Assembly: GCA_036417435.1 (NCBI GenBank)
Contig: JAZAQT010000377.1
Coordinates: 116,001-180,000, forward strand
Origin: Inia geoffrensis
Lineage: Eukaryota; Chordata; Mammalia; Artiodactyla; Iniidae
Direction of reading: 5' to 3'
Length of the DNA stretch: 64,000 bases
Position numbers and translations under genes: made by a program. Each line of letters begins with the position of its first letter. Positions within the stretch are counted from its first letter, which is position 1. Positions 2,410 through 50,344 of the stretch are shown piece by piece. The notes under the pieces were generated by a model. It did not search any database. It was not told where the DNA came from and saw only the letters and a program-made list of their open reading frames with translations.

Positions 2410-2505
2410 ATGGTGCAGTTGGTAACTTTTGTGGTTCCCATTGGGGGTGACAAATCCTTGCTGCTGTGGGAGCTGAGCTCTCGACCCACGGCCGAGGCCT
2501 TGCAA
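2410..2505 (+). pseudogene. RDM1: RDM1 copy 1 exon 1
   Basis: Starts at ATG 2410 and reads MVQLVTFVVPIGGDKSLLLW then ELSSRPTAEALQ, the expected RDM1 N-terminus. An in-frame ATG at 2374 lies upstream, but homology begins at 2410. CpG-rich flanks fit a promoter. The expected donor position (after TTGCAA) lacks GT. Confidence 0.85.
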
Positions 2506-2883
2506 CTGAGACGAGCCGGATCGGAGGGAGGGTTGGAGGAAGCTGCCCCGCACCCCAGTAACTGGGCTCCCCGGGGTACTTCTTCAGTACCTTATCGGCC
2601 TGTGGTCTCCGCTGAGAGGAATCTTAGTTCTAGAGATGACCTGAGCAGTCAGCTCTCCCCCATAAACTTTTGAGAGATACTTCCCAACAGAAGGCATTGC
2701 CTCCTAATGTTTCTCGAAGCTTAGGATTTCAGAGGGACTTGTTCATGAAATGAGAAATGTTTGGAGTTCCAGGCTCACCACAGTTACCTGTGGCGAAAGG
2801 CTGGGGGAATATAAGGGAATGGGCAGTTTTGTTTACTGGGCCTGAAATTTACTGCAGTTACTTAGCGTGGAACCGCCCTACAG

Positions 2884-3062
2884 CATTCTCTCCTCACAGT
2901 CTTCTCCTGGTTTGGCCTTCTTATTCTGTCTGAGTCTTCCCAAACGCAGCAGTGGCCTGTCCTGGGTTCTATGCCATCATCAAGTTTTGTTCAGCAATGG
3001 ATGCCCACAGAGCCCAAAAGGCATGCGACCAGAAGCAACTTTTTCACACATCTCCAGTGAAG
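2884..3062 (+). pseudogene. RDM1: RDM1 copy 1 exon 2 (RRM core), frameshifted
   Basis: Acceptor CTACAG and donor AAG/GTGGGT are intact. It encodes HSLLTVFSWFGLL, and after a one-base frame correction, FYAIIKFCSAMDAHRAQKAC and a KQLFHTSPVK end. The segment between holds the frameshift and a TGA codon (VxVFPNAAVA region). Confidence 0.87.
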
Positions 3063-3130
3063 GTGGGTCCAAATGTGGAATTCCTCACTCTACTGGGATG
3101 ATGTGCTGAATTTAAAACTAATAGCCCATT

Positions 3131-3240
3131 GGGAATTCCCTGGCTGTCCAGTGAATAGGGCTCTGCACTTTCACTGCTGAGGGCCCGGGTTGAATCCCTG
3201 GTCTGGGGACTAAGATACCGGGGGGGGGGGGGGGGGGGGG
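3131..3240 (+). repeat. tRNA-derived SINE head ending in a poly-G run
   Basis: Starts GGGAATTCCCTGGCTGTCCAG with a B-box-like GGTTGAATCCCTGG, as in tRNA-type cetartiodactyl SINEs. It is shared with copy 2 (42301-42400), where the tail is GGGAGGAGGGGAGGGG. Here the tail is an uninterrupted run of 21 G (3220-3240). Confidence 0.75.
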
Positions 3241-3289
3241 AGGCCAGCGTTTCTACAGCACTGTGGTGTACAGAATGCTCTCAGATGCA

Positions 3290-3450
3290 CTGCTCCACTG
3301 ATCCCCCAGTTCCCCAGTTGTTTCTTTTTTGTTAGATGAAGAAACTCGAACTCAGGATGGTTAAGTGACTTACTTAAGGTTCATGACAGTAAACGTGGAA
3401 ACTAGAGGGCAAACCCAAACTTAACTGATGTTAAACCCCATGTCATTTTA
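3290..3450 (-). repeat. MIR-like fragment
   Basis: Contains the typical reverse MIR phrase GATGAAGAAACTCGAACTCAGGATGGTTAAGTGACTTA in degraded form. Also present in copy 2 at 42470-42635, so it is ancestral. Confidence 0.6.
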
Positions 3451-3530
3451 TGCTGCCCCTTAAGAAATCTTCACAAGAGTCTTCCTTATATTTACTTTTA
3501 TGTGAATTTTAAATGTGTGAGGTTGACAAT

Positions 3531-3865
3531 TTTTTTAAATAAATAAATAAATTTATTTATTTATATTTGGCTGCGTTGGGTCTTTTAGCTGCCCGCCAGC
3601 TTTCTCTAGTTGCGGCGAGCAGGTGTTGCTCTTCATTGCCGTGCGTGGGCTTCTCATCACAACGGTTTCTCTTGTTGCACAGCACGGGTTCTAGGCACGC
3701 GGGATTCAGTAGTTGTGTCTCACAGGCTCTAAGCACAGGCTTAGTAGTTGTGGCACACGGGCTTAGTTGCTCTGCGGCATGTGGGATCTGCCTGCACCAG
3801 GGATCGAACTCGTGTCCCCTGCACTGGCAGGCGGACTCTTAACATTGTGCCACCAGGGATGTCCC
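3531..3865 (-). repeat. CHR-type SINE, antisense
   Basis: A TTTATTTATTTATATTTGGCTGCGTTGGG tail region leads into the antisense tRNA part with GATCGAACTCGTGTCCCCTGC and CCACCAGGGATGTCCC. Shared with copy 2 at 42706-43040. Open frames across it are repeat-derived. Confidence 0.88.
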
Positions 3866-4711
3866 GAGCTTGACAAACTTTGGTCAGATGTAACATAAAG
3901 GAGGCTTCATCATCCTCATCACTCTCAAACTGCCAATTCAGAACTCCTTTTGGATTCCAGAAAATGGTTAAAATATTCTTTAATGCATTGTAGAAACCTT
4001 ATTCCATATCAATATGCCATCCAATTTTACTTCCCCAGAATTAACATTTCATTATGTGCCTTCATTCAGGCACCATTCCTTTTTCAAGGACCTTTCAATT
4101 CCTCTGAATAAGTGAGTGAGGCTTAGATTTCCCAGACCTTTCACTTTATAATTTTGTATTTTCTCTGATTGGGTTCTTGCTTCGGCCACTTCCTACTGAC
4201 CTTGCTGCCTCTTCTCACCCATATTTCTTTTCTCACTGATTTCACCTTTATTGAATCTGAGAAGGCTCCTCAGATGGGACTCCAGGTACACTACCTCCCA
4301 CCTCTGTAATCTGTTTAACACCCACTTCAATCCTAGCTGTACTCCCTGGGATTGAAATGATTTTGTGTCAGACATTCTTTAATTTGCGGACCCTGCGACC
4401 ATTTCACGAACCACTCAGATATGACAGATGGTCCTGGAATGATTATGAAGCAGTTTCTTGGTATCATTTGTGAGTAATGAGTTCTTTTCTTATATGGGAC
4501 ATTAAGACCATTCCATAAACGTAGGTTGTCAGATTTTCACAGCATAAAGCCTGTCACTGACAGAGTAATGAAGAAAATGTTCTCCAAGTCATTATAGAGT
4601 TGAGAGGAAAGGGCATTCATATTCGATTTCTTTATTTAAAGCAGAGCCTTAGTTTACTACCCACACCACCGAAATTGTTTCCTTATTTACATATGCGTTC
4701 TTTTTCAATTT

Positions 4712-4976
4712 TATTTATTTATTTTGTTGCACCGGGTCTCAGTTGCAGCAGGCAGGCTCCTTGTTGTGGCTCAAGGGCACCCCAGTTGTGGCATGTGGGC
4801 TCCCCATTTGCAACAGGCAGGCTCCTTTAGTTGTGGCTTGCAGGCTCCTGAAATGTGGCATGCAAACTCTTAGTTGCAGCATGCATGTGAGACCTAGTTC
4901 CCTGACCAGAGATCGAACCCGGGCCACCTGTATTGGGACCAAGGAGTCTTAACCACTGCACCAGCACGGAAGTTCC
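4712..4976 (-). repeat. tRNA-derived SINE, antisense
   Basis: A TTTATTTATTTATTTTGTTGCACCGGG tail and an antisense B-box GATCGAACCCGGGCC, ending CACGGAAGTTCC. Counterpart in copy 2 at 43856-44128. Confidence 0.85.
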
Positions 4977-6213
4977 AATTATGAGTTATTTTATTCATTG
5001 GGAGGTATACATACTTCTTAGCTTTTTTCCCTGTGTTTTTTATAAATACAGAAAAGAGAATAACATCTTAAAATAAAATGAAGGAAAGGCCTAATGTATC
5101 TGAGTTTTTCTCAGTAGCATGAAGGGAAAGGTTTACCAGCAAGAACTGTGGCAAAGTTATCCCAGATGTGAACTGTCTCTACTACCCAGTGGCTCAGAAC
5201 CCTTCTGAAGCTTCCTAATTGTCCAGGACACCTCCATTATGACTCACCGCACAGTACCTAGCCTCCCATGTGACACTCAACATTTAAAAATTAGTCTTCA
5301 TTTCTCCTTCCTTGCAGGCAGCTTCAGTTGGAGAAAGTAACTTCATTTTCTTATGTACTCATTCATTCACTCAGTCAACAGACCATCACTCCTCTACTGT
5401 ATGCCAAGACCTATGCTTGTTACTGGTAACAAGGAAAGAATAATACATGGTTCCTTCAAGCACTTAAGGATCTCATAAACTAGTGACAGAGGAAGATGCA
5501 CAAACAAATCAATAAAGAATTAACAATGCTTTGACTTTATTTGTATCATTTGAATTTTTATGACTATATTTATATACTATACCCTGTTCAAAATGGAAAT
5601 AGACATTTAAGAAAGAGCTAGTGATGTAAAAAATCCACAGTAATATGTAAGTTCTTTAGAGAGTTAAGACTGGAAATATTTGCACTCTCAAAGAAGCTTG
5701 TTAATGCAGATGAACCTCTAATTCTTTTCATTGATTCATTTACATTTATAGAGGTAGACTTATTCCCTCTTCTAACAGGGGTTAGTAACTTGGGGAGGGT
5801 GGGCTACAGATTAAGGTCCTAATTCAGTGGCAGGTCCATCTTGTCTTCTCTTCAGGTCATATTCTCAAGCAGGAGCTACAGGATGAGATGAGTAAAACAG
5901 TTCACTTCCTTTGCTTACCCCCAGCTCCATAATAGGCTTCTGCTGAGCTTCCTTGGTTGCTTTCATCATCACTTTCACCACCGGATGTCAGGGAACTTGC
6001 TGGTTAGTGAGGGGCCATGGAAATGATGCAGAAAAGTACTGACTTAAAAATAATAAATAACATTTATTTAGGGATCACTGTGAACTCATTGCTTAAAATG
6101 TCCTACTTAATCTTCACAACCACTCTATAAAATTGGTAATGATAAATCTCAGGTATATCCAAAATAAGTCTCTATGTAGGATGGTGATATTTTTAGGTCT
6201 TTTATGTCTTTAG
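4977..6213 (+). other. RDM1 copy 1 intron 2, right part
   Basis: Non-coding sequence collinear with copy 2 (44129-45362). It holds old repeat-like words (ACTCATTCATTCACTCAGTCAACAG) but no exon that I can place. Confidence 0.6.
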
Positions 6214-6336
6214 GTTCATCTCGGCACCAGACCTAAGGCGGTTCAACATAATACGCTTGCCCTAAACAGCTCCAGATGCCAAGAATTGGCAAATTACTAC
6301 TTTGATTTCCATGGGTGGTCAAAAGGGATCATCAAG
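6214..6336 (+). pseudogene. RDM1: RDM1 copy 1 exon 3
   Basis: 123 nt, phase 0 on both sides, acceptor TCTTTAG and donor AAG/GTACTC. Encodes VHLGTRPKAVQHNTLALNSS then RCQELANYYFDFHGWSKGII K. The CQELANYYF motif is characteristic of RDM1. Open. Confidence 0.92.
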
Positions 6337-6710
6337 GTACTCTTTAGACTTTCTTTGACTAACCAGACCCCTTTCAACATTGAACTCCTAGACTTTAGAG
6401 AGAAGAATAGAACAGGGCTATGGGGAGGAGATGTGGGAGGCTTCCACATGGAAGTATCTGAGCATTGGCCTTCCACCTAGAATTAGTGATAATCTCAATG
6501 ACTTGGATGGTGGTGTCCATAATTTTCTCCAGTATTTGTATGGTATATCATAAAAAAATAGTTGTCCATATCTAGTCATTCATTTGCAAGTCTCAGTTGA
6601 TTTTGAAGGGATAGCATACCTAAACTATTACCTGGGATTGCTGAAGTTTGGTATTTATTCCTAACAACAGAATATGTTGAAGTCTAGCCTTTAATTCAAA
6701 ATCCTAACAG

Positions 6711-6879
6711 CTTCAGGATCTTTCTAACTTTGAAGAAAGGGAAAATACAGATACTGTGACACCACTTCAGAAGCAAAGTCTGAAGTTCTTCTGTGCTTTC
6801 GAGGTGGTGTTGACCTCCCACGAGTGCAGGAGTCCCTGAGTTGGCATGGCTGAGGAACCTTTGGGTAAGTTGGAGGAAG
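6711..6879 (+). pseudogene. RDM1: RDM1 copy 1 exon 4 with in-frame stop
   Basis: 169 nt after acceptor CCTAACAG. Encodes LQDLSNFEERENTDTVTPLQ then KQSLKFFCAFEVVLTSHECR, SP, a TGA stop, VGMAEEPLGKLEE. The donor is GTCTGT in both copies, so it is probably ancestral. Copy 2 has Gly at the stop position. Confidence 0.9.
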
Positions 6880-7866
6880 GTCTGTTTTCCAGTATGTGTG
6901 TGTGGGGGGAGGTGAGGGAATGGGATATCTCTTTTTTCCTTTCTTTCTGAAACTCAACTTTTCAGATACATCATCATCTTTTCTAAGTAACTAAAGCTCT
7001 GGGCAGAATTGTTCTGCCCAACAATATAGGTTTTTATCTTAGGCAATACCTGACAGCACCTTAAACTTTTGAATTTTAATACTAACTGCCTGCTAAGAAG
7101 CTTAGGAGGAGGAAAAAATAGGGGGTTTTTTTTGTTTGTTTTGGGTTTTTTTTTTCTTGTTGTTGTTGTTGTTAATAATTTGTTTTGGGCTAAAATTGTC
7201 CTTCAAATGCACATGTTCTATGGCCTTCAGTTATCCCCAAAAAATATTTGTCTAAAGATTGAAATAAACTCTTGTGTAAATTTTCAGTCCTTTGCCTCTT
7301 ATAGAAGGGCCTGAGTGGAAAAAGTAAATGTAGATCCCTAGAAAGGGGATTCTGATTGGTACTGAGTATTTTCCTAGAATCCATGGCACTTGGACTTAGG
7401 GTTTTAAGTCAGAGGCAGGGCTGTTAACAAATGGGGAGGAGGAGGCTCCACCATCCACCTGAGTGGGTGATGGTTGAGTAGAGGCCAGATCATCTGCACT
7501 ACAATCAAATCTATCTCACTCTATGAATCTAACCCTTTACACACGGGAGAGCAGTGTCTGTAGCAGTGTAGTCTCAGCTTGTCTATTTGAAACCTGTGAG
7601 TAATATGAGATTTGTGCCACGTTCTTGGTTTTCTTGTCCCGTTTAATATTTTAGGAACTGCCAGAATAGATCTGAGCGGTAAAAATATGCCATGCCAGGG
7701 TATACCTACAAGGGAGACATTCACCTGTACCCCAGTGTTGTGCCTGCCCTTAATCATTAAGATAATGATCTAAGAATCACAGATGCATTTTTAGTTTTAA
7801 CTGTATAACCTAGAAGTCAGTTACTCATATAGGCATTTTAAACTCAACTGTTGTGGTTGGATTTAG

Positions 7867-7965
7867 GGTCATTATCATTACTTATGAAAAGGAAGGTAAC
7901 CCAGAAGCTTGCTATTCAGAAAGCTATGACAGATGCATTCCAGAAATTGCTGATTGTGGTTTTAG
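7867..7965 (+). pseudogene. RDM1: RDM1 copy 1 exon 5
   Basis: 99 nt, acceptor GATTTAG, donor TTTTAG/GTAAGA. Encodes GSLSLLMKRKVTQKLAIQKA then MTDAFQKLLIVVL, a highly typical RDM1 stretch. Open and in phase. Confidence 0.93.
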
Positions 7966-8234
7966 GTAAGAACTTTTTGATTGTCGTTGAAGTGCTTCAG
8001 TTTCAGTAAGCAAATAAATTTATTTGTAAAGTTAGTTGGATGAAAATACTGGTTATCTAAAACATTACACATTCTTTCATTCACAAGATGCTTTCACAGC
8101 AGCAGTCTTACATTTGTTCTTTGTGGCACTTATGAGAAAAATGTCAGCAAATATTATTGTCCCCAGTGTTTAGATGTAGAATCACTTGCCTCAATTCATA
8201 CAGAAAATGTTTGATCCAGTTCTTCCTCAATTGC

Positions 8235-8545
8235 TTGCTTATCGTACAGGATAGGGTAGTGATTATAAGCCTTAGACACCTGTGTTTGAGTCCTAACTTT
8301 GTCTCTTAGGTTTTGTTGTTGTTGTTGTGGCAATTTTAGGTTTTTCCAGCCAGAGACATTTGAAGGTATTTAATACCTCTAAGCTGCAATTTCTTTACCT
8401 GCAAATAGGGTTAGTAATTCAGCTTACCACCAAATCGGGGATATTGTAAGTGTAAATCGGGTGATGAATATAAAAAGCTTAGAACTATGCCTGAAACATA
8501 GTAAGCAGACAAAAAATATGTTGACTATTATTATTACCGCTGTTT
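8235..8545 (+). repeat. MIR element
   Basis: Recognisable MIR phrases: GATAGGGTAGTGATTATAAG, TGTGTTTGAGTCCTAAC, CTGCAATTTCTTTACCTGCA, ending GCCTGAAACATAGTAAGC and ATTATTATTA. Counterpart in copy 2 at 47370-47660. Confidence 0.75.
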
Positions 8546-9613
8546 TCTTGTTGAAGAGTTTATTAGACTATCTTTTTGAAATCAGTTTAATTTCAGTTTT
8601 CATTTCTGATATATTGGGTGAATATGATTCTTATATAATAATCAGCTACATTTTTGTGAGTCTTGAAATTGGTCATGCCATTGAATAGCATTGATTGTGT
8701 TCCCTATTGAGTTATACAGCAGTGAGAATGTCACAGGCTGTGCCGAAAGGAAACTTTATGATTAGTAGACTCCTGGAACTGAATTGCTCCCCTGCTTCAC
8801 AGCCCTGCAGGCTGAGAGACTGAGAAATCCTAATGAAGTTGTCAGAGAGATTATTTGCTTGTAAGAGTTGACCCTGGATTGTTCTTGGCATTCCAACCTG
8901 GGCAGTCCTTCCAGGGAAGTTTGACTTCCCTGGTCATCAGGCAGAATCTCCATCAGCTGTCAACTCTGGGTAACAACCTTTAAGAACCAAATTAAATGCC
9001 TGGGTTGTTTGTGCCTAATATGCCAAGGTATTCTTAATATGTACACAAAACCCCTTAGACCAAAAAGCCTGGTGGCTCTAGCTTGCCTTGAGGAAAGCCG
9101 TATTGCCCAAAGGGTACATGGGCCAGTTTCTGCCAGTAGAGAGTTCAAATGCGCTCTCTCTCTGTCTCTGTCTCCAAAGCTTTGTTCATTGTATCTGGTA
9201 GAATTTTGGTCCGAAAGAGTAGGCACGGGCCTTGCTTCTAATAGGAAGTATCTATTATAGTCCAGTGGTATCTCTCCCAGGTTTGAACTCACTTCGACCC
9301 CCAACTAATGCCTTCCTATTTAAGTGTATTGAACATTTTTGTTTCCACACTTTTTAATTCCTATGTCCTTATTCCTTAGTTCTTATTTCTAAGATCAAAA
9401 AGTTTTTGAACCAAAGTTGATACTTCTTACATATGCTTTCACAAATAATTATGATAAAAACTGAAGTGTCAGATGAGCGAACTTCTAGGAAAATGCTGTT
9501 ATTTTCTGCTTTTAGAAGTCAAAAGAATGTCTAATTATTCATTGCTACCATTGTATATAGGAAGTTTTAGAACAAAAAAACTTCTGAATTGATCCTTGTT
9601 AACTTTATTTCAG

Positions 9614-9699
9614 AAAGTGGTAAAACAGCTATGGCATATAGACCCTGTGAACATGTCACAGATGCTAGAATCGAAGAGGAACTACAGGATTTCATTCAA
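9614..9699 (+). pseudogene. RDM1: RDM1 copy 1 exon 6
   Basis: 86 nt, acceptor TTTCAG, donor CAA/GTATGT. With the G from exon 5 it encodes ESGKTAMAYRPCEHVTDARI then EEELQDFIQ. Open and in phase. Confidence 0.92.
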
Positions 9700-11159
9700 G
9701 TATGTGGAGTTAAAAGCTCAAGGGGTGCACAGCCAGTGTAGCCATAATTCAAAACAACCAGCAGGATTTGGAAGACTTTGGTCTGTCTACTCAGTCCTGT
9801 CTTCCTTAGGGAAATGTGAAATTCTGAAAGTGCTTTTGAGACAGGGAATTTCTAGGACTTTTCCAAGTCCTGGACCTTGTGTCTGGCCCCTTATTTGAAG
9901 TTGGGAGAGCAGGATTGAGGGCCACCAGTGTACGCCTATGGTTGTGGACACAGGAGAAGACAGAGGCCTCTTAGAACTCCCCTCAAATAGAATTTCAGGG
10001 ACTTGGGAACAAAGTAACTATGGCCTTAAGTGTGATTATGCTACACTGTTTAAAAACTATTCATGCCTTTCAAGTAAGGTATATTACCCAGATCTCAACA
10101 CCTCATATATATCTTGTGTTAAATATTTTGCCAAAGAACCTTATTGTAAACCCGTTATATCGATGCCTCAAATTAGGGGTTGAGTTGTCAATGTAATTTC
10201 TAAAAGAAAACATTAATGTACTACATATAGGATTTTTATTTAAAAGGAGCAAAAAATGTGTTTCATGTCATTGAGAGCTTAATTTTTGGCTAGATTTCTG
10301 ATTATTTAACTCATCCCAATGTTGCAAAGTTTGTTTGGAAGGGAAGAAAGTAGAGAAAGAAAAGGTGGTTATGTTCTGAAAAATGAAAAAAAAATGAAAG
10401 TTTTTCCTGTACAAAATAGTTATTTTAATTTTGACTCAATTTAAATCAATCAAGGAAACTTCAAATGTATCCATGTTTGGGCTATAAGAAGTCCAGCTTC
10501 CTGTGAAATGTGAGAGGAAAGGGTTCCATATTGATACTAAAGCTTTTGGAAACCTGATTATAACAAAAAATCCACTCCTAAATGAGGCCAATCTTGGAAT
10601 CAGTTCCATTTAGAAACCATTATGTGCTAGGCAGTGGAGATAAGATGAAGCTCCTTCTCTCCTGGAGTTTAGGTGTTAAAGGTGTACCAGAGAATTAAAA
10701 AGGATTAAAATTAAATAAATTATGAAAAGGACTGTAAAGAAAGTAAACTGGGTGCTAGTTACAGTATTTCAAGAACATTACTTAACATGCTGACTGTAAC
10801 ATTCTAAGTGTCTTCTCCATGTGTTCACACAGGGTAGACCTCTGAAAAGTGACACTAGTTTTTTTCTAGATTAATGGCTCTGTTGAGACAAGGTGTGATG
10901 GGGGAAGTTTTCCCATGCTAATGTAAAGGGCCATTCACTTGGTTTTAAACTCTCTTTCCCAGAATGAATTGCTCACCTGTCCCAAACCCCTCTTACAGAA
11001 GTTCTGGAGTCATCACTGATTCAGTGGTAACTCCTAATACCACAGTTGTGAATGCATAATGAGACGTGAATACTGAGAGTTTGGAGGGAATGGCAACATT
11101 TTAGCATAATTGTAAGGAGTGTCCACCTCACACCACCTTAACTGGTGCTCATTTTGCAG

Positions 11160-11261
11160 GTCAGCTACTTTTCTGGTCAGCCATGTGACCAAAGGGAGGA
11201 AGAATGTCTCTCAGACTTCAGCTTTCAGGAGGAAGTGTTCAGATTGCCAGCACTGGACTAA
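11160..11261 (+). pseudogene. RDM1: RDM1 copy 1 exon 7 (terminal)
   Basis: Acceptor TTTTGCAG. Encodes VSYFSGQPCDQREEECLSDF then SFQEEVFRLPALD and TAA. The acidic SFxEEEFRLPxLD end is the RDM1 C-terminus. The NUMT begins only about 90 bases downstream. Confidence 0.92.
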
Positions 11262-11353
11262 CACTTTTGAATTTCCCAGAATGCCAAGTCCTGTGGTTTC
11301 CTCGGGAATCTCTGCATCCTTCTGAACACCCGTCCACCACTGGGCTGCTGGAG

Positions 11354-22500: not shown

Positions 22501-23783
22501 GTGGTGGGCTGACTACTGTGGGTGGTCTGGTAGGCTTGGCTGCCCCCAGACTGCTTCTTTTCCAGGCTCTGCCTTGTAGGGAGGCTGTCGGTGAGACTAA
22601 ATCATAAGGCAGCTGGCTGCACAACTCTGGAGGACACCAAATCTAGTGTTGGATCATTTATGGATAGAATTGGAGTCCAGGTGATATCAGGGCTAATGCC
22701 CAGTCACTGGTCCTGGGGCTATGCTGGCTACTGGGAGGAAGACACAGGCCCTGAGTTCTGGCTGCAGGACCCAGGAGTCACAGAGTTGGTGTAGGATCAC
22801 TGTCCCTGACAACAACTATCTACAGGGTCTGTGGTATCCCTAATCTTGTATTGGCATTCTGATGGGCAGGGTCAGGACCTAGCTGAGCCCATGGCTGCTT
22901 CTGGCCTGCAAGTGAGAGTACTGGTCACACACGCTGTTGGACAGTGGTATTCCTGGAGCTGGTGTGTGCCTGTTGGTGTACGAGGCTGATCCCATTGATA
23001 GAGCAGGTTTGCTGTTGGGTAGGTCCAAGCTCCATCCAGTGCCTGGTCAGTAATCACCTGCTGACAGTGAGACTGATTCCGAGGCCAGAGCAGTTAATCT
23101 GGTGATCCCATGGAGCATGTTTTAGAAAGGGAGATGGTAGAGATGGAAACACCAGTCAGAAGACAGTTATGCACATCCAGGTGAAATGAGAGAATAAGCT
23201 GAAATCAATGGAAATAACATAGTCAACTATCGTCAAGAGTAGGTATTTTCGAATAAAAGTCAATATGATAGAAAGTGTAATCCTGGATTAACGTTACATA
23301 TGAATGATAGAAGTAACATCCTTTCAAGTTTTGTGAAAGGGTATCTTTTATTTCTTCCGGTAATGAATTGGCCTAGAGAAACAGAACTATACCAGGAAAT
23401 GTGTAAATATATGAATATTCCTTCTAATATTAGAAATTATAATGATATATAGAGATAAAAACGTTGAGCTCAAAGTCTAGAATTTGATAAGGCCACAAAT
23501 GTTGGAATCTAATCAATGCCTCTGCTCTCAGGAAAGATTAACTCCAAAATCTATAAAGATTTCTAGTCGTATATTTAATTTATGAAGATCCTGAAGGTGA
23601 CACTCTAAAGAGAGGTGAAGGCAGGGTTAGGGGCTCTGGAAGGTTCAAATAGTAATTCCTAAGGTTTGGAGATTAGAACAAAACTTCTTATTTGTTATTA
23701 TCATTCTAACTTCTACTAGTTATTCCTACTAATTAGATATCTAATAGCTAATTGAGGCAATATTTTCCTTTTACCTTTCCTAG
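22501..23783. other. No recognised gene; intron upstream of LRRC37 LRR exon
   Basis: 22500-23100 is moderately GC-rich and continues L1-like text. 23100-23783 is AT-rich. I looked for the preceding LRRC37 LRR exons (LILRENNLTEL type) and did not find them. Confidence 0.5.
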
Positions 23784-26220: not shown

Positions 26221-26235
26221 AAAAGATTGTCACAG

Positions 26236-27355: not shown

Positions 27356-27368
27356 AATATGGTACCAA

Positions 27369-28059: not shown

Positions 28060-29000
28060 TTTTTCACTTGCTTGATAGTGTCCTTTGAAGCACAAACTTT
28101 TTGATTTTTATAAAATCCAATTCATCTATTTTTCCTTTGGTTGTTTGTACTTCTGGTATCATATCTAAGAAACTATTGTCTAATGCAAGGTCATAAAGAT
28201 TTACTCCTGTGTTTTCTTCTAAGAGTTATATAGCCTTAGCTCTTACATTTGGATATTTGATCCATTGGGAGTTTATTTTTATATATGGTGTGAAGTGTAG
28301 GAGTCCAGCTTCATTATTTTGTGTGTGGATGTACAGTTGTCCCAGTATCATTTGAAAAGACAGTTCTTTCCACATTGAATTGTTTAGGTACACTTGTTGA
28401 AAATCAATAGACCAAAAATATGACGGTTTATTTCTATACTGTCAGTTCTGTTCCATTGATATACATATCGGTTCTTATTCCAGTACCACACTGTGATTGC
28501 AGTAGCTTTGAACTGAGTATTGAAACCAGGATGTGTGAGTCCCCCACTTTGTTCTTTACCAACATTGTTTTGGTTATTCTGTTTCCTTGATTTGCTATAT
28601 GAATTTTAGAATTAGCTTGGCAATTTCTGGAGAGATATCAGCTGGGATTTTGATAGGAATTGCAATGGAACCATAAGTCGATTTGGGAAGTAGTGACATT
28701 TTAATATGACTATCTTCCAGTCCATGAATCCAGCATGTCTTTATATTTATTTAGATCTTCTTCAATTTCTTTCAACAGTTTTGTACTTTTCAACGTGAAT
28801 CTTGCACTTACTTGGTTAAATTTTTCCCTAAGTATTTTATGCCTTTTGGTGCTGTTACACATGGAATTGTTTTCTTAATTTCATTTTTGGATTACTCATT
28901 GCTGGTGTGTAGAAATAATATTGATATTATATCCTACAACCTTGATGAATTCTTTTATTAATGCTAACAGTTATTTTCCTAGATTCCCAGGAATATGTCT
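28060..29000 (-). repeat. L1 ORF2 region, antisense
   Basis: Typical reverse L1 ORF2 text: ATCATATCTAAGAAACTATTG, TTTTTATATATGGTGTGAAG, GTTCTGTTCCATTGATATAC and CTTCAATTTCTTTCAACAG. Degraded. Confidence 0.85.
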
Positions 29001-40834: not shown

Positions 40835-41578
40835 TTGACTCTTAATTGAGGAATATTAAAATTTTAATTATTTAATATTTTTATTTTTAATCAATGAAGA
40901 TAAATTTTAAAATTCATGATGTAATTGCATTATTTCAATTCATACTTTCAGAGTTCCAGCTTCCTAAGTTTCTAAGAACTACCCCCTTGCTAAAAATCAG
41001 ATTCTTGGTTACATTATTAAGCTAGTAATAGCTCAGTTACATTGTCAGCTTAATAATGTAACTGATCCGCATACATAAAGGAACCAGAGAAAGGAATGGT
41101 TGGGGGAAGGGAATTAACATTAATGCCCTCATATCCTATGCTGTTCTCTCTGCAAATGAGAACTTATTGATATAGTGCATCACAGTTTGTAAACTGATTT
41201 TATATACATTAAGTCTCAAGTACCCTCTGTCTTATAGGACAGGTGTACATATATTTTTGTTTATTTTGTTTGTTTCTGCAATTTTATAAAGAGTACAAGT
41301 GATGCTGTTTTATGTCCTATTTGGAGCCTGAGAGTTTCTGGTTCCATAATAAGAAGCTGCTACCTAGTCCTTGTAATGGAATGGAGAGCTAGTTTATTCT
41401 TACTCTCAAGCTCTGAACTTGCTCTGAATCTCATGCTTTTCTATCCACAAAACACTCAGGGGCTTTCAACTCTTTTTCTATATATTAGATTTATTGGCAC
41501 TAAGTATTTAAAAAGTGCGGGTGCGCGTGCGCAATCGTCCGCTTGCGCCCCGAGCAGCGCACGTGCGGTGACGGTGGG

Positions 41579-41674
41579 ATGGTGTAATTGGTCCTTTTTG
41601 CGGTTCCCATCGGGGGTGACAAAAGCTTGCTGGTGTGGGAGCTGAGCTCTGGACCCACCCCTGAGGCTTTGCAA
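41579..41674 (+). pseudogene. RDM1: RDM1 copy 2 exon 1, stop at codon 3
   Basis: ATG 41579, then GTG and TAA (41585-41587), then a clear RDM1 sequence LVLFAVPIGGDKSLLVWELS. CpG-rich upstream (GTGCGCGTGCGCAATCG). No GT at the expected donor. Confidence 0.87.
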
Positions 41675-42052
41675 TAGAGCCGTGCCGGAGCAGAGGGAAG
41701 GGTGGAGGAAGCCGCCCCGTGCCCCAGTAACGGGGCACCCCGGGGTACTGCTTAAGTACCTCATCTGCCTGTGGTCTCCGCTGAGAGGAATCTTAGTTCT
41801 AGAGATGACCTGAGCAGTCAGCTCACCCCCATAGATTTTTGAGAGTTAGTCCCCAACAGAAGGCATTGCCTCCTAATGCTTCTTGAAACTTAGGATTTCA
41901 GAGGGAACTTGTTCATGAAATGAGACGTGTTTCGACTAGCAGGCTCACCACAGTTACCTGTGGTGAAGGGCTGGGGGACATAAGGGAATGGGCGGTTTGG
42001 TTTCCTGGGCCTGAAATTTACTGCACTTTCTTAGTGTGAGACCACCCTAAAG

Positions 42053-42232
42053 CATTCTCTGTTTACAGTCTTCTCCCAGTTTGGCCTTCTGTATTCAGTC
42101 CGAGTCTTCCCAAACTCAGCAGTGGGTGGTCCTGGGTTCTCTGCCATCATCAAGTTGTATTCAGCAAGGGATGCCCACAGAGCCCAAAAGGCATGCGACC
42201 AGAAACAGCTTTTTCACACATCTCCAGTGAAG
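42053..42232 (+). pseudogene. RDM1: RDM1 copy 2 exon 2 (RRM core), donor lost
   Basis: 180 nt, fully open: HSLFTVFSQFGLLYSVRVFP, then NSAVGGPGFSAIIKLYSARD, then AHRAQKACDQKQLFHTSPVK. The donor GT is AT. Confidence 0.93.
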
Positions 42233-42300
42233 ATGGGTCCAAAGGTGGAATTCCTCGCTCTACTGGGATGAAGTGCTGAATTTAAAACTAATAGGCCATC

Positions 42301-42400
42301 TGGAAATCCCTGGTGGTCCAGTGATTAGGACTCTGCACTTTCACTGCTGAAGACCCGGGTTGAATCCCTGGTCTGGGGACTAAGATCCCAGGGAGGAGGG
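42301..42400 (+). repeat. tRNA-derived SINE head
   Basis: Copy 2 counterpart of 3131-3240: AATCCCTGGTGGTCCAGTGA, ending in a G-rich but interrupted tail. Confidence 0.75.
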
Positions 42401-42705
42401 GAGGGGAACGGCTGGTGTTTGTACAGCACTGTGGCGTACAGAATGCTCTCACATGCACTGCTCCACTGATCCCCCAGTTCCCCAGTTGTTTCTTTCTCTT
42501 TTTTTAGATGAAGAAACTTGAACTCAGGATGGTTAAGTGACTTACTTAAGGTTCATGTCAGTAAATGTGGAAACTAGAGGCCAAACCCAAATTTAACTGA
42601 TGTTAAACCCCGTGTCATTTTATGCTACCCCTTAATTTAAGAAATCTTCACAAGAATCTTCCTTATATATACATTTATGTGGATTTTAAATGTGTGAGGT
42701 TGACA

Positions 42706-43040
42706 AATTTTTTTAAATTAATGAATTTATTTATTTATTTTGGGCCGCGTTGGGTCTTGTTGCTGAGCGCCGGCTTTCTCTATTTGCGGCGAGCAGAGTT
42801 TGCTCTTCGTTGCAGTGCATGGGCTTCTCATCGCGCCGTCCCCTCTTGTTGCGGAGCATGGGTTCTAGGCATGTGGGCTTCAGTAATTGTGCCTCACGGG
42901 CTCAAGAGCACAGGCTCAGCAGTTGTGGCACACGGGCTTAGTTGCTCTGCGGCATGTGGGATCTGCCTGCACCAGGGATCGAACCCATGTCCCTTGCACT
43001 GGCAGGCGGACTCTTAACATTGTGCCACCAGGGAAGTCCC
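42706..43040 (-). repeat. CHR-type SINE, antisense
   Basis: Copy 2 counterpart of 3531-3865, ending CCACCAGGGAAGTCCC. Confidence 0.9.
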
Positions 43041-43855
43041 GAGCTTGACAAACTTTTGTCAGATGTCAGATAAAGGAGGCTTCATCATCATCATCACTCT
43101 CAAACTGCCTATTAAGAACTCACTTCAGATTCCAGAAAATGGGTAAATATTCTTTAATTTATTGTAGACACCTTATTCCATATTAACATGCCATCCAATT
43201 TTACTTCCCTAGAATTAACATTTCATTATGTTAAGGACCTCTTCAATTCCTCTGAATAAGTGAGTGAAGCTTAGATTTCCCAGACCTTTCCCTTTATAAT
43301 TGTGTGTCTTCTCTGATTGGCTTCTTGCTCTAGCTACTTCCTACTGACCTTGCTGCCTATTCTCACCCATATTTCTTTACTCACTGATTTCACCTTTATT
43401 GAATCTGAGAACTCTCCTCAGATGTGACTCCAGGTACACTACCTCCCAGTTCTGTACCCTGTTTAACACCCTCTTCAATCCTGGCTGTACTCCCTGGGAT
43501 TGAACGACTCTGTGTCAGACATTCTTTAATTTGTGGACCCTGCGACCATTTCACATACCACTCAGATATGACAGATGGTCCTGGAAAGATTATGAAGCAG
43601 TTACTTGGTATCAGTTTTGAGTAATGAGCTCTTTTCTTATATTGGACATTAAGACCATTCCATAAGCATAGGTTGTGAGATTTTCACAGCATATAGCCCG
43701 TCACTGATAGCATAATGAAGAAAATGTTCTCCAAGTCACTATAGAGTTGAGAGGAAAGGGCATTCGTATTAGATTTCTTTATTTAATGCAGAGCCTTAGT
43801 TTACTACCGACAACCCCGACAATTTTCCCTACTTTACTTATGCGTTCTTTTTCAA

Positions 43856-44128
43856 TTTTATTTATTTATTTATTTGGTTGCACCGGGTCTCAGTTGGAGC
43901 AGGCGGGCCCCCTAGATGCGGCTCAAGAGCTCCCCAGTTGTGGCATGTGTGCTCCCCATTTGCAGCAGGCAGGCTCCTTTAGTTGTGGCTTGCAGGCTCC
44001 TTAAATGTGGCATGCAAACTCTTAGTTGCAGCATGCATGTGAGACCTAGTTCCCTGACCGGGGATCGAACCTGGGCCCCCTGCATTGGGATAACGGAATC
44101 ATAACCACTCCACCAACACGGACGTTCC
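43856..44128 (-). repeat. tRNA-derived SINE, antisense
   Basis: Copy 2 counterpart of 4712-4976. Confidence 0.85.
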
Positions 44129-45362
44129 AATTATGTGTTCTCTTATTCATTGGCAGGTATCTTCCTATCTTTTTTCCCCTGTGTTTTTTTATAAATACAG
44201 AAAAGAGAATAACATCTTAAAATAAAATGAAGGAAAGGCCTAATGTATCTGAGTTTTTCTCAGTAGCACGAAGGGAAAGGTTTGCCAGTGAGAACTGTGG
44301 CAAAGTTATCCCAGATGTCAGCTGTCTCTACTACCCAGGGGCTCAGAGCCCTTCTGAAGATTCCTAATTGTCCAGGACAGCTCCATTATGACTCACCGCA
44401 CAGGACCTAGCGTCCCATTTGACACTTAACATTTAAAAATTAGTCTTCAATTCTCCTTCCCTGCAGGCAGCTTCAGTTGGAGAAAGTAATTTCATTTTCT
44501 TATGTACTCATTCATTCACTCAGTCAACAGACCATCACTCCTCTATTATATGCCAATATGTATTCTTCTTTGTGGGAACAAGGAAAGAATAATATATGGT
44601 TCCTTCAAGCACTTAAGGAGCTCATAAACTAGTGACAGAGGAAGATGCAGAAACAAATCAATAAAGAACTAACAATGCTTTGACTTTATTTATATTATTT
44701 GAATTTTTATGACTAAATTTATATACTACACCCTGTTCAAAATGAAAATAGACGTTTAAGAAAGAAGTAGTGATGTAAGAAATCCACAGTAATATGTAAG
44801 TTATTTAGAGAGTATAAGACTGGAAATATTTGCATTCTCAAAAAAGCTTGTTAATTCAGATGAACGTCTAATTCTTTTCGTTTTTTATTTACATTTATAA
44901 AGGCATACATATTCCCTCTTCTAGCAGGGGTTAGTAACATGGGGAGGGGGTGCTACAAATTAAGGTCCTAATTCAGTGGCAGGTCCATCTTGTCTCCTCT
45001 TCACAGCATATTCTCAAGCAGGAGCTACAGGATGAGACAAGTAAAACAGTTCACTTCCTTTGCTTACCCCCAGCCCCATAATAGGCTTCTGCTGGGCTTC
45101 CTTGGATGCTTTCATCATCACTTTCACCACCGGATGTCAGGGAACTTGCTGGTTAATGAGGGGCCCTGGAAATGATGCAGAAAAGCACTGACTTAAAAAT
45201 AATAAATAACATTTTTTTAGGGCTCACTGTGAACTCATTGCTTAAAATATCCTACTTAATCTTCACAAACGCTCTATGAAATTGGTATTGATAAGTCTCA
45301 GGTATATCTAAAATAAATCTCTATGTAGGGTTGAGATATTTTTAGGTCTTTTATGTCTTTAG

Positions 45363-45485
45363 GTTTGTCTCGGCACCAGACATAAGGCGGTTCATCACAA
45401 TATGCTTGCCCTAAACAGCTCCAGATGCCAAGAATTGGCAAATTACTTCTTTGGTTTCCATGGGTGGTCAAAAAGGGTCATCAAG
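45363..45485 (+). pseudogene. RDM1: RDM1 copy 2 exon 3
   Basis: 123 nt open: VCLGTRHKAVHHNMLALNSS then RCQELANYFFGFHGWSKRVI K. Donor AAG/GTAAAC. Confidence 0.93.
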
Positions 45486-45860
45486 GTAAACTCTGTAGAC
45501 TTTCTTTGACTAACCAGACTCCTTTCAACATTGAACTCCTAGACTTTAGAGAGAAGAATAGAACAGGGCTATGGGGAGGAGATGTGGAAGGCTTCCACAT
45601 GGAAGTGTCTAAGCATTGGCCTACCACCTAGAATTAGTGATAACCTCAATGACTTGATGGTGGTGTCCATAGTTTTCTCTGGCATTTGTATGGTATATCA
45701 TAAAGAAATAGTTGTCCATATCTAGTCATTCATTTGCAAGTCTCAGTTGATTTTGAAGGGGTAGCATACCTAAACCATTACCTGGGATTGCTGCAGTATA
45801 GTTTTTATTTCTAACAACAGTATATGTTGAAGTCTAGCCTTTAATTTAAAATCCTAACAG

Positions 45861-46029
45861 CTTTGGGATCTTTATAACCTTGAAGAAAGGGAAAATAAAG
45901 ATATTGTGACACTACTTCAGAAGCAAAGCCTGAAGTTCTTCTGTGCTTTAGAGGTGGTGTTGCCCTCTCACGAGTGCAGGAGTCCTGGAGTTAGCATGGC
46001 TGAGGAACCTTCGGATAAGTTGGAGGAAG
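45861..46029 (+). pseudogene. RDM1: RDM1 copy 2 exon 4
   Basis: 169 nt open: LWDLYNLEERENKDIVTLLQ, KQSLKFFCALEVVLPSHECR, SPGVSMAEEPSDKLEE. It keeps Gly where copy 1 has TGA. Confidence 0.92.
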
Positions 46030-46982
46030 GTCTGTTTTCCAGTATGTGTGTGTGGGGGGAGGTGAGGGAGTGGGATTTCTCTTTCCTCCTTTTTTTCTGA
46101 AACTCAAATTTTCAGATACATCATCACCTTTTCTAAGCAACTAAAGCACTGGGCAGAATTTTTCTGACCGACAATACAGGTTTTTATCTTAGGCACTACC
46201 TGACAACACCTTAAACTTTAGAATTTTAGAACTCGCTGCCTGCCAAGCTGCTTAGGAGGAGGGAAAATTAGTTATTATTATTATTTTCTTGGTTAATAAT
46301 TTGTGCTAAAATAATCCTTCAAATACACATGTCTTCTGGCCTTTAGTTATCCCCCAAAAAATCATTGTCTAAAGATTGAGAAAAACATGTGTAAATGTTC
46401 AGTCCTTTGCTTCCTATAGAATGGCCTGAGTGGAAAATAAAAAAATGTAGATCCCTAGAAAGGGAATTCCAATTGATACTGAGTTTTTTCCTAGATTCCA
46501 TGGCACTTGGGCTTAGGGTTTTAAGTCAGAGGCAGGGCTGTTAGTGAATGGGGTGGAGGAGGCTCCACCATACACTTGAGTGGGTGATAGTTGAGGAGAG
46601 ACCAGATCATCTGTACTACAACCAAATCTATCTCATTGTATGAGTCCAGCCTTTTACGCAGAGGAGAGCAGGGTCTGTAGCAGTGTAGCCTCAGCTTGTC
46701 CATTTGAAATCTGTGAGTAATATGAGATTTCTGCCACGTTCTTGGTTTGCATTTCCCGTGTAGTATTTTAGGCACTTCCAGAAGAGATCTGAGCCATAAA
46801 AATGTGCCATGCCAGGGTATACCTACAACAGAGACACTCACCATACCCCAGTGTTGTGCCTGTCCTTAATCACTAAGATAATGATCTAAAAATCACAGAT
46901 GCATTATTAGTTTTAAACATATAACCTAGAAATCAGTTATTCATATAGACATTCTAAATTCATCTGTTGTGGTTGGATTTAG

Positions 46983-47081
46983 GGTCATTATCATTCCTTA
47001 TGAGAAAGATGGTAACCCAGAAGCTTGCTATTCAGGAAGCTATGACAGATGCATTCCAGAAATTGCTGATTGTGGTTTTAG
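46983..47081 (+). pseudogene. RDM1: RDM1 copy 2 exon 5
   Basis: 99 nt open: GSLSFLMRKMVTQKLAIQEA then MTDAFQKLLIVVL. Donor TTTTAG/GTAAGA. Confidence 0.94.
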
Positions 47082-47369
47082 GTAAGACCTTTTTGATTGT
47101 CATTGAAGTGCTTCAGTTTCAGTGAGCAAATAAACTTATTTGAAAAGTTAATTGGATGAAAATAATGGTTATCTAAAACATTACATATTCTTTCATTCAC
47201 CAGAAGCTTTCACAGCAACTGGCTTAACTTTGTTCTTTGTGACATTTATGAGAAGAATGACAGCAAATATTATTGTCCCCAGTGTTTAGATGTAGAATGA
47301 CTGACCTCAGTTCATACAGAAAGTGTTTGATCCACTTCGTCCTCAGTTGCTTGCTTATCATACAGAATA

Positions 47370-47665
47370 GTGTAGTGATTATAAGCCTTGGACACCTGTG
47401 TTTGAGTCCTAACATTGTCTCTTAGATTTTGTTGCTGTTGTTTTTGCAATTTTAGGTTTTTCTAGCCAGAGACATTTGAAGGTATTTAATATCTCTAAGC
47501 TGCAATTTCTTTATCTGCATATAGTGTTATTAATTCCACTTACCACCAAATGGGTGATATTGTAAGAGTAAATGAGGTGATGAATGTAAAAAGCTTAGAA
47601 CTGTGCTTGAAACATAGTAAGCAGACAAAATATATTGACTATTATTATTACCAGTGTTTTCTTGT
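47370..47665 (+). repeat. MIR element
   Basis: Copy 2 counterpart of 8235-8545. Confidence 0.72.
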
Positions 47666-48692
47666 TGAAGTGTTTATTTCTGATATATTGGATGAATATG
47701 ATTCTTTTATAATAATCAGCTATGTTTTTGTGAACCTTGAAACTGGTCATGCTATTGAATAGCATTGACTGTGTTCCCTATCCAGTTATACAGCGGTGAG
47801 GATGTCACAGGCTGTGCCCAAAGGAAACTTTATGATTAGTAGATTCCCAGAACAGAATTGCTCCCCTGCTTCACAGCCCTGCAGGCTTAGAGACTGAGAA
47901 ATCGTAGCTAAGTTGTCAGAGAACTTATTTGCTTGTAAGATTTGACCCTGAATTGGACTTGGCCTTCCAGCCTGGGCAGTCCTTCCACTGAAGTTTGACT
48001 TCCCTGCTCATCAAGCACAATCTCCATCCGCTGTCAACTCTGGGTAAAAACCTTTGAGAACCAAACTAAATGTCTGGGTTGTTTGTGCCTAATATGCCAA
48101 GGTACTCCTTATATGTACACAAAACCCCTTAGACCAAAAAGCCTGGTGGCTCTAGCTTGCCTTGAGGAAAGCTGTATTGTCCAAAGGGTACATGGGCCAG
48201 CTTCTGCCAGTAGAGTGTTCAAATGCACTCTCTCTGTCTCTGTCTCCAAAGCTTTGTTCATTGTATCTGGTAGAATTTTGGTCCCAAGGAGTAGGCACTT
48301 GCCTTGCTTCTAATAAGAAGTATCTGTTATAGTCCAGTGGTATGTCTCCCAGGTTTGAACTCACTTTGAACCCCACCTAATGCCTTCCTATTTAATTGTA
48401 TTGTGATTGAACATTTTTGTTTCCACAGCTTTTAATTTCTATGTCCTTATTCCTTAGTTCTTATTTCTAAGATCATAAAGTTTTTGAACCAAAGTTGATA
48501 CTTCTTATATATGTTTTAACAAATAATTAATAATAAAAACTGAAGTATCAGGTCAGAGAACTTCTAGGAAATTGCTCTTACTTTCCGCTTTTAGAAGTCA
48601 AAAGAATGTCTAATTATTCGTTGCTACCATTGTATATAGGAAGTTTTAGAACAAGAAAACTTCTGAATTGATCCTTGTGAACTTTATTACAG

Positions 48693-48778
48693 AAAGTGGT
48701 AAAACAGCTGTGACATATAGACCCTGTGAAGAGGTCACAGATGATAGAACCGAAGAGGAACTACAGGATTTAATTCAA
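48693..48778 (+). pseudogene. RDM1: RDM1 copy 2 exon 6
   Basis: 86 nt open: ESGKTAVTYRPCEEVTDDRT then EEELQDLIQ. Acceptor TTATTACAG, donor GTATGT. Confidence 0.93.
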
Positions 48779-50233
48779 GTATGTGTAGATAAAACTCAAG
48801 GGTTACACAGCCAGTGCAGCCATAATTCAAAACAACCAGCAGGATTTGGAAGACTTCCGCATATCTACTCACTTCTGTCTTCCTTAGGAAAAGGTGAAAC
48901 TCTGCAAGTGCTTTTGAGGCAGGGAATTTCTAGTACTTTTCCAAGTCCTGGACCTTGTCTCTGGCCCCTTATTTGAAGTTTGGAGAGCAGGATTGAGGGC
49001 CACCAGTGTACGCCTATGGTTGTGGACACAGGAGAAGACACAGGCGTTTTAGAGCTCCCCTCAAATAGAATTGCAGATTTGGGAATAAAGTAACTATGGT
49101 CTTAAGTGTGATTATGCTACACTGTTTGAAAATTATTCATGCCTTTCAAGTAAGGTGTATTACCCAGATCTCAACATCTCATATGTATCTTGTGTTAAAT
49201 ATTTTGCCAAAGAACCTTTCTGTAAAACAATTATATGGATGCCTCGAATTAGGGAGTAAGTTGTCAACGTAATTTCTGAAAGAAAACATTAATGTACTGC
49301 ATATAGGATTTTTATTTAAAAGGAGCAAAAAATGTGTTTCATTCATGTCATTGAGAGCTTAATGTTTGGCTAGATTTCTGATTATTTAACTCACCCCAAT
49401 GTTGCAAAGTTTGTTTTGAAGAGAAGAAAGTAGAGAAAGAAAAGGTGGTTATGTTCTGAAAAATGTAAAAATTTTGAAAGTTTTTCCTGTACAAACTAAT
49501 TATTTTAAATCAGTTTAAATCAGTCAAGGGAACTTGAAACATATCCATGTTTGGGTTTTAAGAAGTCTAGCTTCCTATGAAATGTGAGAGGAAAGGGTTC
49601 CGTATTGATACTAAAGATTCTGGAAACCTAATTTTAAGAACAGATCCACTCTTAAATGAGGCCAATCTTGGAATCAGTTCCATTTAGAAAGATTATGTGC
49701 TAGGCAGTGGAAATAAGGTGAAGCTCCTTCTCTCTTGGAGTTTAGGTATTAAAGGTGTAGCAGACAATTAACAAGGAGTAAAATTAAATAGATTATGAAA
49801 AGAACTGTGAAGAAATTAAACTTCGTGCTAGTTACAGTATTTCAAGAAAATTACTTAACATGCTGACTTTAACATTCTAAGTGTCTTCTCCATATGTGCA
49901 CACCGGGTAGACCTCTGAAAAGTGACACGGTAGTTTTTTCTAGATTAATGGCTCTGTTAGGACAGGTTGAGATGGGGGAAGTCTTCCCATGCTAATGTAA
50001 AGGGTCATTCACTTGGTTTTAGACTCTCTGTCTCAGAATGAATTGCTCACGTGCCCCAAACCCCTCCTACAGAACTTCTCGAGCCATCACTGTTTCAGTG
50101 TTGACCCCTAATAACAGAGTGATGTATGAATAATGAGACGTGAATACTGAGAGTTTGGATGAAATGGCAACATTTTAGAATAATTTTAAGGTGTGTTCCC
50201 CTCCCTCCACCCTAACTGGTGCTCATTTTGCAG

Positions 50234-50344
50234 GTCAGCTACTTTTCGTGTCAGCCGTGTGGCCATAGGGTGTTAGAATGTCTCTCAGACTTCAGCTTTG
50301 AGGAGGAAGAGTTCAGATTGCCAGAACTGGACCAGCACTTTTGA
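50234..50344 (+). pseudogene. RDM1: RDM1 copy 2 exon 7
   Basis: Open from acceptor TTTTGCAG: VSYFSCQPCGHRVLECLSDF then SFEEEEFRLPELDQHF and TGA. Three codons longer than copy 1 because the ancestral stop is lost. Confidence 0.92.

What the first reader, a model, noticed from the sequence alone, without database searches (positions are those of the whole stretch)
2410..50344. Both RDM1 copies are disabled by different lesions
Copy 1 has a one-base deletion and TGA in exon 2, and TGA in exon 4. Copy 2 has TAA at codon 3 and an exon 2 donor changed from GT to AT. Both lack GT at the expected exon 1 donor. No inactivating mutation is obviously shared except perhaps the exon 1 donor. If no third intact copy exists, this lineage has lost RDM1, a DNA-damage-response gene. 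The shared donor defect would date the first hit before the duplication.
Basis: partly seen in the sequence, partly recalled or inferred. Interest (0 to 1): 0.8.

Follow-up and report, generated by a model that had tools for sequence, protein, structure and literature searches.

The report
RDM1 pseudogenes, mass-amplified; original intact
The two broken copies of the DNA-repair gene RDM1 in this whale-like genome belong to a family of more than a hundred copies spread through repeat-rich chromosome blocks, broken wherever we read them, while an RDM1 with an unbroken reading frame still sits at the gene's normal place, so loss of the gene is not shown.

Summary
The lesions are real. Copy 1: exon 1 donor GT>CT, 1-bp deletion and TGA in exon 2, TGA in exon 4. 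Copy 2: TAA at codon 3, exon 1 donor GT>TA, exon 2 donor GT>AT, own stop lost. The loss reading fails: a third RDM1 beside LYZL6 on contig C31 (52,071,948-52,081,404) has an open 277-codon frame, GT/AG at every intron and the RDM1 Pfam domains. The shared-donor reading fails: native CAA|GTGAGC became CTGAGA in one copy, TAGAGC in the other. The window copies are two families of one duplicon that breaks off about 27 bp upstream of the inferred transcription start; their exons changed at intron rate (odds ratios 1.02, 1.06). Exon-2 and exon-3 probes find 137 and 133 places, controls 0. Of 98 exact exon-2 places listed, 44 carry copy 1's TGA, 51 copy 2's marker, 3 the native type: 42 on C5, 12 on C7, 9 on C8, 31 on unplaced contigs, 3 on C31, 1 on C1. 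A protein search adds 17 on C3. The 1-bp deletion is late. Open point: since a second C31 copy arose, the intact gene shows no measurable constraint.

The parts
2334..11353 (+). RDM1 copy 1 block of the duplicon, homologous to C31 from 75 bp upstream of the RDM1 ATG onward
   Evidence: blastn against C31; self alignment
2410..2505 (+). copy 1 exon 1; donor position 2506-2507 reads CT, native GT
2884..3062 (+). copy 1 exon 2 with 1-bp deletion between 2921 and 2922 and TGA at 2931-2933; GT donor kept
6214..6336 (+). copy 1 exon 3, open
6711..6879 (+). copy 1 exon 4 with TGA at 6837-6839
7867..7965 (+). copy 1 exon 5
9614..9699 (+). copy 1 exon 6
11160..11261 (+). copy 1 exon 7 with TAA stop
41507..51610 (+). 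RDM1 copy 2 block of the duplicon, same upstream breakpoint as copy 1
41579..41674 (+). copy 2 exon 1 with TAA at 41585-41587 (codon 3); donor position 41675-41676 reads TA
42053..42232 (+). copy 2 exon 2, open frame; donor position 42233-42234 reads AT
45363..45485 (+). copy 2 exon 3
45861..46029 (+). copy 2 exon 4, no stop
46983..47081 (+). copy 2 exon 5
48693..48778 (+). copy 2 exon 6
50234..50344 (+). copy 2 exon 7; stop codon lost, three more codons to TGA
651..2332 (.). 1.68-kb segment abutting the RDM1 breakpoint in copy 1; also at 39826-41503 (before copy 2) and 51599-53295 (after the copy 2 block); no match over 200 bp in the 50 kb of C31 compared
23092..28280 (+). interrupted piece of the native region downstream of RDM1 (C31 offsets 45381-49556) between the two copies

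Best explanation
The window holds two unprocessed RDM1 pseudogenes on one rearranged segmental duplication of the native LYZL6-RDM1 locus. The duplicon begins 75 bp upstream of the RDM1 start codon, about 27 bp upstream of the transcription start inferred from two retrocopies, so it most likely left the promoter behind (inferred). Without expression both copies decayed neutrally (neutral rate shown, cause inferred) and gained separate lesions (shown). Copies of the dead pair were then spread, as trios about 52-53 kb apart on C5 and further copies on C3, C7, C8 and unplaced contigs, by segmental amplification (spread shown, mechanism inferred). An RDM1 with an open frame stays at the native locus on C31 and is the likely source of any RDM1 protein.
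For: Native gene: LYZL6 exons upstream; 7 exons, open 277-codon frame, GT and AG at every intron, 77% identical to recalled human RDM1; Pfam DSRM_RDM1 1.5e-30, RRM_1 and Rad52_Rad22. Common breakpoint: homology to C31 starts at offset 21873-21874 in copy 1, copy 2 and array copy L038; both retrocopies align from offset 21900; the second C31 copy keeps upstream sequence. Neutral decay: exon versus intron substitutions, copy 1 branch OR 1.02 (p 0.86), copy 2 branch OR 1.06 (p 0.72); on the C31 stem OR 0.47 (p 0.006). Near-simultaneous split: K2P 0.100, 0.102 and 0.102 for C31a/copy 1, C31a/copy 2, copy 1/copy 2. Spread after death: exon 3 133 places and exon 2 137 places, controls 0; 44 TGA-type, 51 copy-2-type and 3 native-type among the 98 exact places listed; array A copy L038 97.5% to copy 1 with its donor CT and both TGAs; array B copy L041 97.8% to copy 2 with its TAA and both broken donors. 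Of 140 scored matches to the native protein, exon 2 identity over 90% occurs only at the two C31 copies.
Against: The native gene is not proven functional. Since the split from the second C31 copy its exons changed no more slowly than introns (OR 1.40, p 0.25); a codon model gives omega 0.79 on the C31 lineage, not distinguishable from 1 (lnL gain 0.17); a neutral simulation keeps frame, start and splice ends free of substitution lesions in 5.5% of runs. The exon 7 acceptor kept by the window copies is mutated in it (TGCAG>TGCTG), so the model uses an in-frame AG 21 nt downstream. It differs at 7 positions where recalled human agrees with most other copies. For the copy-2 family, death before the spread rests on one array copy read over exons 1-2 (L041) and one over exon 2 (L042); exon 2 itself is open at most listed copy-2-type places. 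Promoter loss and heterochromatin are inferred; no RNA or chromatin data were available.
Confidence: 0.9

Rival explanations
1. The lineage has lost RDM1: no working copy remains, the C31 copy being a pseudogene whose frame happens to be open.
For: On the C31a tip exon rate is not below intron rate (OR 1.40, p 0.25); omega on that tip 0.93; the exon 7 acceptor kept by the window copies is mutated in it; the second C31 copy is dead.
Against: Exons are constrained on the C31 stem (p 0.006 overall, 0.002 outside the converted tract). An open frame with start and splice ends intact over the whole C31a path has probability 0.055 under neutrality counting substitutions alone.
Confidence: 0.12
2. The stops and deletion are assembly errors in a collapsed or misjoined repeat.
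For: The window is the last 64 kb of a 180-kb contig in a multi-copy region.
Against: The TGA is at 44 listed exact places on several contigs; copy 2's lesions recur in L041; the deletion recurs in a 701-bp match on C5 with the self-match score.
Confidence: 0.02
3. The exon 1 donor was broken once before the two copies split, and changed again in one or both.
For: Both copies have lost the donor G.
Against: The +1 base is C in copy 1, its 6 relatives and L038, and T in copy 2 and L041; +2 is intact in copy 1 and A in copy 2. C31a and C31b keep GTGAGC. The three lineages are about equidistant, leaving little time for a shared hit.
Confidence: 0.05
4. The amplified copies have a role: transcripts from the arrays act as noncoding RNA on RDM1 or on the chromatin.
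For: High copy number and 96-100% identity within families at the 40 places scored for each.
Against: Exons of the window copies evolve at intron rate; the native upstream sequence is cut away. Recent amplification explains the high identity.
Confidence: 0.05

Closest known systems
RDM1 (RAD52 motif-containing 1), vertebrate DNA-damage-response gene (function recalled)
   Same: Exon order, phases and protein similarity to recalled human RDM1; LYZL6 is the neighbour of the native copy, as recalled for human; Pfam domains.
   Different: The window copies keep introns but carry stops, a frameshift, broken donors and no native upstream sequence beyond 75 bp.
Unprocessed (duplicated) pseudogenes in segmental duplications (general knowledge)
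   Same: Intron-containing, about 10% diverged from the native gene, disabled, neutrally evolving.
   Different: Very high copy number; the pseudogene pair itself became part of an amplified unit.
Macrosatellites and pericentromeric duplicons that carry gene copies, such as D4Z4/DUX4 in humans (recalled)
   Same: Kilobase-scale units with gene pieces, high identity among copies, several chromosomes.
   Different: Copies here are in spaced groups tens of kb apart over many Mb, not shown to form one head-to-tail array; no expression data.
Common cetacean satellite (L1-derived; PMC9659126, passages seen)
   Same: The contig's far end holds a tandem repeat of period 1756 with L1 ORF2-like sequence in it; the review says the common satellite resembles the 3' part of L1.
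   Different: No sequence of that satellite was compared; the match rests on period (recalled) and L1 likeness.

Membership tests
Functional RDM1 (the C31 gene) | Open frame over all exons with canonical splice ends | tested here: met
   277 codons, GT/AG at every intron; exon 7 by a downstream in-frame acceptor
Functional RDM1 (the C31 gene) | RDM1 domain content | tested here: met
   DSRM_RDM1, RRM_1, Rad52_Rad22, all over cut-off
Functional RDM1 (the C31 gene) | Conserved neighbourhood | tested here: met
   LYZL6 exons just upstream, same strand; that they are neighbours in human is recalled
Functional RDM1 (the C31 gene) | Purifying selection | tested here: inconclusive
   Constraint on the stem (OR 0.47, p 0.006), none detectable on the tip (OR 1.40, p 0.25); omega 0.79, not different from 1
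Functional RDM1 (the C31 gene) | Expression | not testable with these tools
   No RNA data
Unprocessed pseudogene (window copies) | Introns retained | tested here: met
   7 exons with introns in both copies
Unprocessed pseudogene (window copies) | Disabling lesions | tested here: met
Unprocessed pseudogene (window copies) | Neutral exon evolution | tested here: met
   OR 1.02 and 1.06, neither different from 1
RDM1 loss in the lineage | No intact copy in the assembly | tested here: not met
   Copy with open frame and intact splice ends on C31
Amplified segmental duplication | Many places with over 90% identity beyond 1 kb | tested here: inconclusive
   Over 1 kb only single copies were read: L038 97.5% over 5.1 kb, L040 99.83% over 1.2 kb. 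Over 701 bp, 40 of 40 scored places (158 candidates) are 97-100% for copy 1 and 40 of 40 (158 candidates) 96-100% for copy 2
Constitutive heterochromatin block | C-band or repressive chromatin | not testable with these tools
   Only a tandem repeat on the same contig was seen

The most novel reading that the evidence does not exclude
RDM1 is in slow terminal decay in this lineage. After a promoter-less duplicate was amplified to more than a hundred places and a second native copy died, the last open RDM1 has evolved without detectable constraint, sharing a recently homogenised tract with its dead neighbour and relying on a substitute exon 7 acceptor. The arrays would then record how a repair gene can turn into chromosome-block building material.
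Probability: 0.15. Interest if true: 0.6.

Novelty: new member of a known kind. Interest (0 to 1): 0.42.

Why it matters
It prevents a false report of loss of a DNA-damage-response gene in what looks like a cetacean: where many broken copies exist, they can be taken for the gene. It also shows a dead gene pair spread over several chromosomes, with ordered steps (breakpoint near the transcription start, separate lesions, later spread) that can be tested by looking for the same breakpoint in other cetaceans and in hippopotamus.

Tried and rejected
Loss of RDM1: rejected on the C31 gene. Shared donor mutation: rejected on base identity. Assembly error: rejected on recurrence at separate places. 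Processed copies: the window copies have introns; retrocopies are on C1 and C10.

A search for CCL5, CCL14, CCL16 and LYZL6 in the window found nothing convincing, only two CCL5 matches at E 0.6. Tandem Repeats Finder on L013 missed the 1.76-kb repeat because its longest period is 500; scripts found it. The codon model was too weak to separate constraint from neutrality on the C31 lineage. That no other native-like copy exists rests on capped lists: 139 of 1125 candidates scored, 140 of 1120, 100 of 133 places listed and 100 of 137; an intact copy hidden among the rest is unlikely, since the best candidates are scored first, but not excluded. The PF00076 search was too general to use, except for the window's place in the genome. 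One script failed on a slip of mine (mended).

Papers: searches for RDM1 with cetacean (0), RAD52 motif and pseudogene (2), gene loss and mammals (2), whale (6), dolphin (0), and RAD52 motif with cetacean (0) listed nothing that by title and abstract start bears on this; searches on genes lost in cetaceans and on cetacean satellites and heterochromatin were seen as listings only, except PMC9659126, of which passages were seen. The library holds open-licence papers only.
Full report
The window is G000:C369:116001-180000, the last 64 kb of a 180-kb contig in a 2.75-Gb assembly of 895 contigs. Two RDM1 copies lie in a direct repeat, 1-11353 and 39181-50426, 89.1% identical. Copy 2 has also lost its stop codon.

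An intact RDM1 exists. A search of the genome with the window's RDM1 protein (139 of 1125 candidates scored) found, among other places, a stop-free exon 2 on C31 at 52.07 Mb. The DNA there holds LYZL6 exons followed by seven RDM1 exons on the same strand. They join into an open frame of 277 codons with GT and AG at every intron, 77% identical to human RDM1 as recalled, and match Pfam DSRM_RDM1, RRM_1 and Rad52_Rad22 above their cut-offs. One caution: the acceptor that the window copies keep for exon 7 is mutated here (TGCAG to TGCTG), and the model takes an in-frame AG 21 nt downstream. A second search with this protein (140 of 1120 candidates scored) gave exon 2 identity over 90% only at the two C31 copies; the retrocopies on C1 and C10 follow in identity or exceed them in score because their exons are joined, and the arrays lie at 79-85%, one isolated C31 copy at 89%.

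The second C31 copy, 93 kb away and inverted (L039), has a 1-bp deletion in exon 3 and stops at codons 135, 189 and 275. A stretch of about 3.3 kb in it is 99.6% identical to the intact copy, against 89.6 to 97.1% in the neighbouring pieces, which reads as gene conversion (inference). Two retrocopies, on C1 and C10, come from the same splice form; both align to C31 from offset 21900 and end in retained intron 6 at offset 31108. They imply that the native gene was transcribed in the germ line of an ancestor, and their common 5' end is taken as its start (inference).

The shared-donor idea fails. The native exon 1 donor is CAA|GTGAGC. Copy 1 and its 7 relatives read have C at the first intron base; copy 2 and its one array relative read there have T and A at the first two. 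Divergences are nearly equal: K2P 0.100 between C31a and copy 1, 0.102 between C31a and copy 2, 0.102 between the copies, so the three lineages parted at about the same time and the lesions most likely came after. At neutral rates recalled for cetaceans, near 1e-9 per site per year, this is some tens of millions of years; no call supports the rate.

The copies were born without the native upstream region. Homology to C31 begins at offset 21873-21874 in copy 1, copy 2 and array copy L038, 75 bp before the ATG and 27 bp before the start marked by the retrocopies; the second C31 copy does keep upstream sequence. Upstream of the breakpoint the duplicon has a 1.68-kb segment that also stands after the copy 2 block and has no match over 200 bp in the 50 kb of C31 compared. 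In line with that, exons of copies 1 and 2 changed at the intron rate (OR 1.02, p 0.86; OR 1.06, p 0.72), while on the C31 stem exons changed about half as fast as introns (13 of 832 against 244 of 7519 sites, OR 0.47, p 0.006; outside the converted tract OR 0.34, p 0.002).

Amplification. A 39-base exon 3 probe with up to 3 mismatches finds 133 places, control 0 (100 listed). A 28-base exon 2 probe with up to 1 mismatch finds 137 places, control 0 (100 listed, 98 of them exact). Of these 98, the window's two included, 44 carry copy 1's TGA, 51 the copy 2 marker (which is not itself a lesion) and 3 the native type: C31a, C31b and the C1 retrocopy (recount). By place: C5 42, C7 12, C8 9, unplaced contigs 31, C31 3, C1 1. 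The listed C5 places lie at 90-118 and 150-153 Mb, with one more at 158 Mb; C7 at 23-29 Mb; C8 at 92-102 Mb. One search adds 17 exon 2 matches on C3 (38-52 Mb), each with a TGA. On C5 at 90-118 Mb many come as trios about 52 and 53 kb apart; at 151 and 153 Mb there are pairs 39 kb apart, as in the window, with a further exon 2 about 51 kb beyond each, a place that would fall past the end of C369.

The array A copy L038 is 97.5% identical to copy 1 over 5.1 kb, breakpoint included, with the donor CT and both TGAs but not the deletion, and its ATG is changed too. The array B copy L041 is 97.8% identical to copy 2 and has its TAA and both broken donors. The array C copy L042, which starts after exon 1, is 92.3% identical to copy 2 and has the AT donor. 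So the copy-1 family was dead before its spread on strong evidence, the copy-2 family on two array copies. The 1-bp deletion is seen only in the window and, by a 701-bp match with the self-match score, at C5:153.13 Mb; 6 of 6 other loci, and L038, lack it; the rest were not read. A further 1.2 kb of C5:153.12 Mb is 99.83% identical to C369, so C369 is probably an allele or a very recent copy of that place.

Context. The first 5 kb of C369 repeat with a period of about 1756 bases, and again at 50-56 kb, with L1 ORF2-like sequence in both. A review says that the common cetacean satellite resembles the 3' part of L1 (PMC9659126, passages seen). Together with the SINE type, recognised from recall, this supports a cetacean, but no call names the species. 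Whether the arrays sit in heterochromatin was not tested.

How sure is function of the C31 gene? Not settled. After the split from the second C31 copy its exons did not change more slowly than introns (14 of 647 against 71 of 4574 sites, OR 1.40, p 0.25). A codon model gives omega 0.79 on the C31 lineage and 0.93 on its tip; neither differs from 1, and the model has little power. A neutral simulation leaves frame, start and splice ends without substitution lesions in 5.5% of runs over the whole path and 39% over the tip. At 7 positions it departs from a residue shared by recalled human and most other copies. The evidence favours a gene that was constrained for most of its history; whether it still is needs expression and cross-species data.

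Noticed in passing
C369:1-23213 and 32400-55608 (outside the window): A large inverted repeat with arms of 23.2 kb, 99.6% identical, about 9 kb apart, with the 1756-bp tandem repeat at both outer ends.
   Followed up: partly
L036 (C1:25737501-25742500) and L037 (C10:80621501-80627500): Two RDM1 retrocopies of the same splice form with retained intron 6; both use internal acceptors in exons 2 and 4.
   Followed up: partly
L039 (C31:52163101-52173100): A second, dead RDM1 copy inverted 93 kb from the native gene, with a tract of about 3.3 kb 99.6% identical to it, probably gene conversion.
   Followed up: yes
C369:67253-81692 (outside the window): A third, partial RDM1 copy (part of exon 5, exons 6 and 7); from 68916 to 81692 it is 95% identical to the copy 2 region over 12.8 kb.
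   Followed up: no
C31:43792035; C1:104861276 and 105350584: Copy-1-type exon 2 with TGA at places far from the listed arrays.
   Followed up: no
window 651-2332, 39826-41503, 51599-53295; C369:71880-73559: A 1.68-kb segment of unknown origin with nearly fixed ends at each duplicon border.
   Followed up: no
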